Below the pieces are notes generated by a model that was given only the letters and a program-made list of their open reading frames with translations, did not search any database and had not been told where the DNA came from. From Dehalococcoidia bacterium (GTDB taxonomy: Bacteria > Chloroflexota > Dehalococcoidia > DSTF01 > JACRBR01), in NCBI GenBank assembly GCA_021462855.1, contig JAJTXQ010000036.1, positions 1-64,000 on the forward strand: DNA of 64,000 nt. Direction: 5' to 3'. Shown here in pieces: positions 16,459 to 17,336 of the stretch (position 1 is the first letter of the stretch; each line of letters opens with the position of its first letter). A program made the position numbers and the translations under genes.

Positions 16459-17222
16459 CCTAACCCCCCCCCCCCCGAGCCGAGACCCGGTAGCGGATCA
16501 GTGATGCTGTCGATGTCCAAGGTCCACGTGCCGGGACACATAGGCGTGGCGTAGCCGGGACTGTTCACCCACGCATCGAGTCGATGCTTGGCTTCCCACA
16601 GAGTGATGCCGACGCGCGGGTACTTGAACCCGCCTATCGCGTGCACGAACAGCGACGAGTACACGCCGGGGGAGTACTGGCTTGCCGGTAGCGCGTATCC
16701 GTTCGTGCTCGTTTGGTGATACAGAATGCTGCCTGCTGGCGTAAGGCTGGCGTCCATGGACGGCGGGTTCTGCCAGTCCGTGAGGTTGCTGAACGGCTGA
16801 ATGATGAAGCCTTCACTCACGTCAAAGGTGAACACGTTCACGCCGCCTATCTCGCCCGTCCATGACCACTCACATGTCCATAGCCCAGCTGACTGCACTG
16901 CCCCTGACGAGGGCAGCGTTGGCGACGAGCCGTCGGGCGCGATCAAGGTTGAGGTGCCAGACAGGAACGCCTCGATGGCGTTACAGTCGCCATCGTACAG
17001 CGTCACGCCCGTTTGCGAGGTCTGCCCGCTCGACACGTCGAGCGTGACCTGCTGCGTATCGGGGCACGCGCCCTCGGCCCTGCGCACCGGCACGGGGTTG
17101 TCGATAACGCTCCCCTCGCGATAGCAGGCGCTCGCCGCCGCCCCGACCACCAGGTAGAGGGCGACAACGGAAGCGAGGAAGAACAGCATGCGCCGCACGA
17201 GAGATCGCATGTTGCCCGTCAT
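16419..17222 (-). CDS. Secreted/lipoprotein-like protein of unknown function with 3' poly-G tract
   Basis: MTGNMRSLVRRMLFFLASVVALYLVVGAAASAC signal (possible lipobox ASAC); the ORF-track start at 17276 lies in the putative promoter. Confidence 0.7.
   Translation of the reverse strand: MTGNMRSLVRRMLFFLASVVALYLVVGAAASACYREGSVIDNPVPVRRAEGACPDTQQVTLDVSSGQTSQTGVTLYDGDCNAIEAFLSGTSTLIAPDGSSPTLPSSGAVQSAGLWTCEWSWTGEIGGVNVFTFDVSEGFIIQPFSNLTDWQNPPSMDASLTPAGSILYHQTSTNGYALPASQYSPGVYSSLFVHAIGGFKYPRVGITLWEAKHRLDAWVNSPGYATPMCPGTWTLDIDSITDPLPGLGSGGGGLGWEFGCRWMGLSC
16464..16476. repeat. Homopolymer C13 (G13 on coding strand) inside the 3' end of the 16419-17222 gene
   Basis: Direct count: taa-ccccccccccccc-gag. 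Confidence 0.9.
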
Positions 17223-17257
17223 GTCACATCTTTTCTGGCGGTACTCCCGCTCACGTG

Positions 17258-17283
17258 AGTATACCCCCCCCCCCACATGGCAA
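17258..17283 (-). promoter_or_regulatory. Candidate sigma-70 promoter with poly-G in the spacer
   Basis: Minus strand TTGCCA (17283-17278) TGT G11 TATACT (17263-17258); spacer 14 nt. Confidence 0.5.
17264..17274. repeat. Homopolymer C11 (G11 on coding strand) in promoter spacer
   Basis: Direct count: ata-ccccccccccc-aca. Confidence 0.9.
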
Positions 17284-17336
17284 GCCTCTGGAACCTTGGC
17301 TGGATCGCCGGCGTGTTACAGTCAGCGGCGCGCGAC

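What the first reader, a model, noticed from the sequence alone, without database searches (positions are those of the whole stretch)
17222..17290. Poly-G tract lies inside the -35/-10 spacer of a surface-protein gene: candidate phase-variable promoter
Seen: on the minus strand TTGCCA-TGT-G11-TATACT precedes the ATG at 17222. Each hexamer matches 5 of 6 positions of the sigma-70 consensus. The present spacer is 14 nt, shorter than the usual 16-18, so 13-15 Gs would restore optimal spacing. Established: Neisseria porA and opc switch expression by slippage of a homopolymer at this same place. Inference: this gene may be ON/OFF or graded by tract length. I know of no well-described case of this in organisms with this gene content.
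Basis: partly seen in the sequence, partly recalled or inferred. Interest (0 to 1): 0.85.

Follow-up and report, generated by a model that had tools for sequence, protein, structure and literature searches.

The report
Slippery G-run inside a gene's promoter
A run of eleven Gs sits between the two halves of the start switch of a secreted-protein gene, where gain or loss of single Gs would be expected to turn the gene up or down; the same arrangement recurs before secreted-protein genes in related bacteria and in many distant phyla, so the known Neisseria-type trick looks much more widespread than described.

Summary
In detail: TTGCCA-TGT-G11-TATACT lies 36 nt before ATG 17222, and G11 is far outside the window's run-length distribution. 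Decisive new evidence is comparative. In 399 same-phylum genomes, TTGACA-N-G7+-TANNNT occurs 17 times against 1 for the reversed pattern and 4 for the C-run version, all exactly C7. A same-order genome has TTGACA-GGGC-G10-TATGTT before a signal-peptide gene, also with a 14-nt spacer. Related copies within one genome differ in tract length (G10/G12, G9/G10). The window's 14-nt spacer is at the short, probably weak end. The mechanism class is known (porA, tp0126). Main unknowns: real length variation, the transcription start, and a rival reading in which the tract is translated.

The parts
17278..17283 (-). -35-like hexamer TTGCCA (5/6)
   Evidence: sequence
17264..17274 (-). G11 homopolymer within the -35/-10 spacer (total spacer 14 nt: TGT + G11)
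17258..17263 (-). -10-like hexamer TATACT (5/6)
   Evidence: pattern hit G000:C30:17258-17272
16419..17222 (-). CDS of 267 aa with signal-peptide-like N-terminus (...LASVVALYLVVGAAASA-C), no Pfam/NCBIfam match and no homologue other than itself; GC3 0.81, no stops in frame against 5-12 in the other five frames
16464..16476 (-). second tract, G13, inside the 3' end of the same CDS; length mod 3 gives proteins of about 253, 267 or 315 aa
16276..16463 (-). alternative C-terminal frames after the G13 tract: stop at once (TAG 16462-16460), current frame (stop 16421-16419), or long frame (stop 16278-16276)
17274..17289 (-). rival element: AGAGG (17289-17285) before ATG 17278 / GTG 17276, from which the frame stays open through the tract (GTG in frame at G11, ATG in frame at G12)
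17337..17454 (-). direct repeat (about 94% overall) of 16093-16213 downstream of the gene
17452..17523 (-). 72-nt fragment (89%) of the gene's own codons about 38-61 (17038-17109): remnant of a decayed upstream gene copy

Best explanation
The G11 tract is the length-variable spacer of a sigma-70-type promoter. Slipped-strand mispairing during replication would add or remove single Gs, changing the distance between TTGCCA and TATACT and so the transcription of a secreted or lipoprotein-like gene (graded or on/off transcriptional phase variation, as in Neisseria porA and Treponema pallidum tp0126). In the assembled state the spacer is 14 nt, which predicts weak or no expression; 16-18 nt (G13-G15) would be permissive. 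Shown: the anatomy, its rarity, its recurrence and its controls. Inferred: slippage in this organism, transcription from TATACT, and the effect on expression.
For: G11 and G13 are the only G/C runs above 7 in the window. Poly-G adjacent to TANNNT occurs twice in this genome and never as the reversed control. Another own-genome contig has TTGACA-AGAACGA-G9-CG-TAGTGT (spacer 18) before a lipoprotein gene; a same-family genome has TTGACA-ACGAGGTA-G9-CG-TAGTAT before a signal-peptide gene; a same-order genome has TTGACA-GGGC-G10-TATGTT, also 14 nt, before a signal-peptide gene with GGAGG. Phylum: 17 forward against 1 reversed and against 4 for C-runs, all C7 while G-runs reach 13 (binomial p 0.0001 and 0.007). 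Of 46 phylum sites chosen without any -35 requirement, 10 have exact TTGACA at a spacer of 16-20 nt. GTDB-wide hits: 68 of 85 spacers are 16-19 nt within an allowed range of about 11-20. Downstream genes secretion-like 37/47 against 65/278, odds ratio 12, p 5e-13. Paralogous promoters differ in tract length with otherwise near-identical sequence: G10/G12 in G081, G9/G10 in two Bacilli MAGs. Literature: porA 11G/10G/9G = full, 2.2-fold lower, 13-fold lower expression (PMC3639595); tp0126 poly-G between -35 and -10 (PMC7864442).
Against: The window's hexamers are 5/6, not perfect, and the spacer is outside 16-18 nt. ATG 17222 has no clear Shine-Dalgarno. The frame is open through the tract from an upstream start with AGAGG. 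No homologue exists to compare tract lengths. The second own-genome site with an adjacent -10 (C35) has a poor -35. Tract lengths in a draft genome, possibly from short reads, are uncertain; two other long tracts lie at contig ends.
Confidence: 0.68

Rival explanations
1. Translational phase variation: transcription starts further upstream, translation begins at ATG 17278 or GTG 17276 behind AGAGG, and the tract lies in the 5' coding region, so its length decides whether the ribosome enters the secreted-protein frame.
For: Frame open through the tract; at G11 GTG 17276 and at G12 ATG 17278 read straight into the gene, at other lengths short peptides result. AGAGG sits 6 nt before ATG 17278. 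ATG 17222 lacks an obvious ribosome-binding site.
Against: It would put about 18 extra, partly charged residues in front of a signal peptide. TATACT at sigma-70-like distance would be a coincidence. In related sites (L015, L090, L091, L093) the tract lies upstream of a ribosome-binding site and ATG, and the -35/-10 are consensus-like. In T. pallidum tp0126 the same conflict was resolved in favour of the promoter by mapping the start (PMC7864442).
Confidence: 0.15
2. The tract is real but without regulatory function: a neutral G-run, or a non-canonical (G-quadruplex) DNA feature, next to hexamers that match by chance.
For: Other long tracts in this and related genomes are not at promoters; phylum-wide, G9-TANNNT without a -35 requirement is only 46 against 30 reversed (p 0.08).
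Against: The TTGACA-anchored enrichment, the G-over-C bias, the sigma-70 spacing peak and the association with secreted genes; two of about ten genome tracts in the same 0.8-kb gene (chance about 0.01, my arithmetic).
Confidence: 0.12
3. Assembly or sequencing artefact: poly-G introduced by two-colour sequencing chemistry or mis-joined contigs.
For: Two long tracts (G21, G19) lie at or within 18 nt of contig ends; tract length in a draft genome is not reliable.
Against: Both window tracts are internal to a contig of about 136 kb with unique flanks, one inside an intact ORF; the same architecture recurs in independently assembled genomes, including a 4.4-Mb contig (G022).
Confidence: 0.05

Closest known systems
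Neisseria meningitidis porA promoter poly-G
   Same: G-run of about 9-11 between -35 and -10 of an outer-surface protein gene; length changes the spacer and the expression level (PMC3639595).
   Different: Different phylum and unrelated gene; assembled spacer here is 14 nt; no measured switching; here a second tract lies in the 3' end of the CDS (porA has a 7A tract in its 5' CDS).
Treponema pallidum tp0126 (OmpW-like) promoter poly-G
   Same: Poly-G between -35 and -10; mapping the start redefined the ORF and revealed a signal peptide (PMC7864442), the same ambiguity as here.
   Different: Pathogen, studied experimentally; no relation of the genes.
Helicobacter canadensis promoter and C-terminal poly-G loci
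   Same: Promoter tracts such as G13-G16 and, in other genes, 3' CDS tracts of G10 or more that switch C-termini among frames (PMC2823697).
   Different: There the two kinds are reported for different genes (as far as read here); the window gene carries one of each.
Neisseria opc poly-C promoter
   Same: Homopolymer-length control of a surface protein promoter.
   Different: The poly-C covers the -35 region rather than lying in the spacer (PMC7864442 discussion).

Membership tests
porA-type transcriptional phase variation (homopolymer in -35/-10 spacer) | homopolymer located between -35 and -10 | tested here: met
   TTGCCA-TGT-G11-TATACT; length outlier
porA-type transcriptional phase variation (homopolymer in -35/-10 spacer) | functional sigma-70 promoter elements around the tract | tested here: inconclusive
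   hexamers 5/6 and 5/6 but 14-nt spacer, not found by the 16-18 nt scan; relatives have perfect TTGACA
porA-type transcriptional phase variation (homopolymer in -35/-10 spacer) | tract length varies within populations or between strains | not testable with these tools
   no reads, no homologue of the gene; paralogous promoters elsewhere differ in length
porA-type transcriptional phase variation (homopolymer in -35/-10 spacer) | expression depends on tract length | not testable with these tools
   needs reporters or RNA
porA-type transcriptional phase variation (homopolymer in -35/-10 spacer) | controls a surface or secreted protein | tested here: inconclusive
   confident N-terminal helix 3-32 and signal-like sequence ending ASA-C; surface location untested
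C-terminal phase variation (H. canadensis type) | long tract near the 3' end with alternative C-termini in the three frames | tested here: met
   G13; products of about 253, 267, 315 aa
C-terminal phase variation (H. canadensis type) | tract length varies in read data | not testable with these tools
   no reads
translational (5' CDS) phase variation | tract lies between a used start codon and the gene body | tested here: inconclusive
   open frame from ATG 17278/GTG 17276 with AGAGG; start unknown

The most novel reading that the evidence does not exclude
A two-layer contingency gene in an apparently non-pathogenic lineage: the promoter G11 sets how much protein is made and the 3' G13 picks one of three C-termini. 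It would be one locus of a poly-G promoter system for secreted proteins that runs through this whole phylum and many others, mostly uncultured, and has gone largely unnoticed because phase variation was sought in pathogens.
Probability: 0.35. Interest if true: 0.78.

Novelty: new member of a known kind. Interest (0 to 1): 0.63.

Why it matters
[quoted passage not shown] This locus, at least one further consensus site in the same genome, and the recurrence of the same promoter design in at least 13 families of the phylum and in many other phyla bear directly on that question. They also give a simple, searchable sequence signature (TTGACA-N-G8+-TATAAT before a signal peptide) for finding switchable surface proteins in uncultured bacteria.

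Tried and rejected
Homologues of the gene for cross-strain tract comparison: none in the family or in 5.8 billion proteins apart from itself; the same held for the second own-genome gene within the order. Pfam and NCBIfam: no match. G9-TANNNT alone is only weakly enriched over its reverse (46 against 30); I rely on the -35-anchored test instead. The C35 tract (TTGC-G13-TACGAT before a secreted protein) has a poor -35, and the C54 contig-end TTGAC-G19 has no good -10; neither is counted as firm. RNA-polymerase slippage: rejected under the promoter reading, because the tract would lie upstream of the transcribed region. The literature search found nothing on phase variation in Chloroflexi or Dehalococcoidia beyond passing mentions; only open-access papers are held.

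Full report
WHAT IS THERE. The window is contig C30 of a 3.0-Mb, 76-contig draft genome; the window itself is 69.5% GC. On the minus strand, 36 nt before ATG 17222, lies TTGCCA-TGT-G11-TATACT. Runs of G or C in the window fall about five- to seven-fold per added base (258 of length 4, 50 of 5, 7 of 6, 1 of 7) and then jump to G11 and G13, so these two are not the tail of chance. Genome-wide there are about ten tracts of G9 or more. Two of ten genome tracts in one 0.8-kb gene has a chance of about 1% (my arithmetic).

THE GENE. The 267-aa ORF is free of stops while the other five frames hold 5-12; its GC3 is 0.81 against 0.89-0.94 for most neighbours (the sulfatase row of that table was read in the wrong frame and is ignored). 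That is codon-like but atypical. It begins with a signal-peptide-like helix ending ASA-C, the only confidently predicted part, and it has no relatives: none in seven same-family genomes, none but itself in 5.8 billion proteins, none in Pfam or NCBIfam. It is flanked by repeats: 118-121 nt downstream (16093-16213) recur upstream (17337-17454), preceded by a 72-nt fragment of its own 5' coding region (17452-17523), most simply the remnant of a decayed tandem copy. This is an orphan, probably fast-evolving, not a conserved gene.

IS IT A PROMOTER? Taken alone, the window site is suggestive: two 5/6 hexamers with a 14-nt spacer that a standard scan rejects. The case rests on recurrence. (i) Own genome: G9-TANNNT occurs twice, the reversed pattern never; C28 carries TTGACA-AGAACGA-G9-CG-TAGTGT, spacer 18, before a lipoprotein gene. 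(ii) Same family (G006): TTGACA-ACGAGGTA-G9-CG-TAGTAT before a signal-peptide gene. (iii) Same order (G013): TTGACA-GGGC-G10-TATGTT, again 14 nt, before GGAGG-ATG and a signal peptide. (iv) Phylum, 399 genomes: TTGACA-N{3,12}-G7-TANNNT occurs 17 times in 15 genomes and 11 families, against 1 for the pattern read backwards. The obvious objection, that real promoters are enriched in the forward sense anyway, was met by swapping G for C: 4 hits, all with exactly seven Cs, whereas 14 of the 17 G hits have 8-13. (v) Without any -35 requirement, 10 of 46 phylum G9-TANNNT sites have exact TTGACA at a spacer of 16-20 nt, where chance would give about 0.1 (my arithmetic). Spacers peak at 16-19 nt (68 of 85). 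Downstream genes have signal-peptide-like starts in 37 of 47 cases against 65 of 278 other genes on the same pieces of DNA (a crude predictor applied to both).

DOES THE LENGTH VARY? Not testable at this locus. Elsewhere, near-identical promoters of paralogous genes in one genome differ in tract length: G081 has TTGACAAATCAC-G10 and -G12 with nearly identical downstream sequence; two Bacilli MAGs show G9 against G10 with matching flanks. This is what slippage predicts, although paralogue differences are not population data.

HOW IT MOST LIKELY WORKS. Slipped-strand mispairing would change the number of Gs and so the spacing between -35 and -10. In porA, 11G, 10G and 9G give full, 2.2-fold lower and 13-fold lower surface expression (PMC3639595); in T. 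pallidum tp0126 a poly-G at the same place works through total spacer length (PMC7864442). By analogy the assembled 14-nt state is weak or off, and 16-18 nt (G13-G15) would be on. Independently, the 3' G13 would switch the protein's end among three frames, about 253, 267 or 315 aa, a mechanism proposed for H. canadensis (PMC2823697). Steps shown: anatomy, rarity, recurrence, controls. Steps inferred: slippage, promoter use, expression effect.

THE MAIN RIVAL. The reading frame stays open through the G11 tract from GTG 17276 (G11) or ATG 17278 (G12), behind an AGAGG motif, and ATG 17222 lacks a clear ribosome-binding site. A translational switch is therefore possible. Against it stand the long charged extension before the signal peptide, the coincidence of TATACT, and the related sites, where tract and start codon are separated by a ribosome-binding site. 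Mapping the transcript start decides.

KNOWN OR NEW. The mechanism class is established; I found no report of it in this phylum. The phylum name is my inference (Chloroflexota, probably a Dehalococcoidia-like class) from genome sizes and gene content of the groups returned; the tools did not name it. A 2025 review calls the restriction of multi-locus phase variation to pathogens a major open question, possibly a sampling artefact (PMC11868660). The breadth found here suggests that sampling is a large part of the answer, but the survey is a pattern search, not a measured rate.

Noticed in passing
window 16464-16476: Second long tract, G13, in the 3' end of the same CDS; its length mod 3 selects three different C-termini (about 253, 267, 315 aa).
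   Followed up: yes
window 16093-16213 / 17337-17454 and 17038-17109 / 17452-17523: Direct repeats around the gene, including a fragment of its own coding sequence upstream: decayed tandem copy or a possible recombination partner.
   Followed up: partly
L002:3186-3198 (G000:C35:50185-50197): TTGC-G13-TACGAT 26 nt before the ATG of another secreted orphan gene in the same genome; -35 poor.
   Followed up: partly
L226:2316-2324 (G000:C28:10815-10823): TTGACA-AGAACGA-G9-CG-TAGTGT before a lipoprotein gene in the same genome, spacer 18: a consensus sister site.
   Followed up: partly
L003:3054-3064 (G000:C54:17053-17063): G11 inside the coding frame of a GDSL/SGNH hydrolase: candidate translational switch.
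   Followed up: no
L001:3337-3357 and L004:3505-3523: G21 and G19 at or near contig ends; long G tracts probably break the assembly, so their number in this genome is underestimated. The G19 is preceded by TTGAC.
   Followed up: no
L075, L076 (G022:C1:620500-664000): Family of at least four secreted-protein paralogues, each behind TTKACA-N-G9/G11-TATATT, three of them within about 6 kb.
   Followed up: partly
L106-L185 (named GTDB genomes): Poly-G spacer promoters before secreted proteins in many gut Bacilli and Clostridia MAGs, Saccharibacteria, Treponema, Elusimicrobia and Streptobacillus; several genomes have more than one, with different tract lengths.
   Followed up: partly
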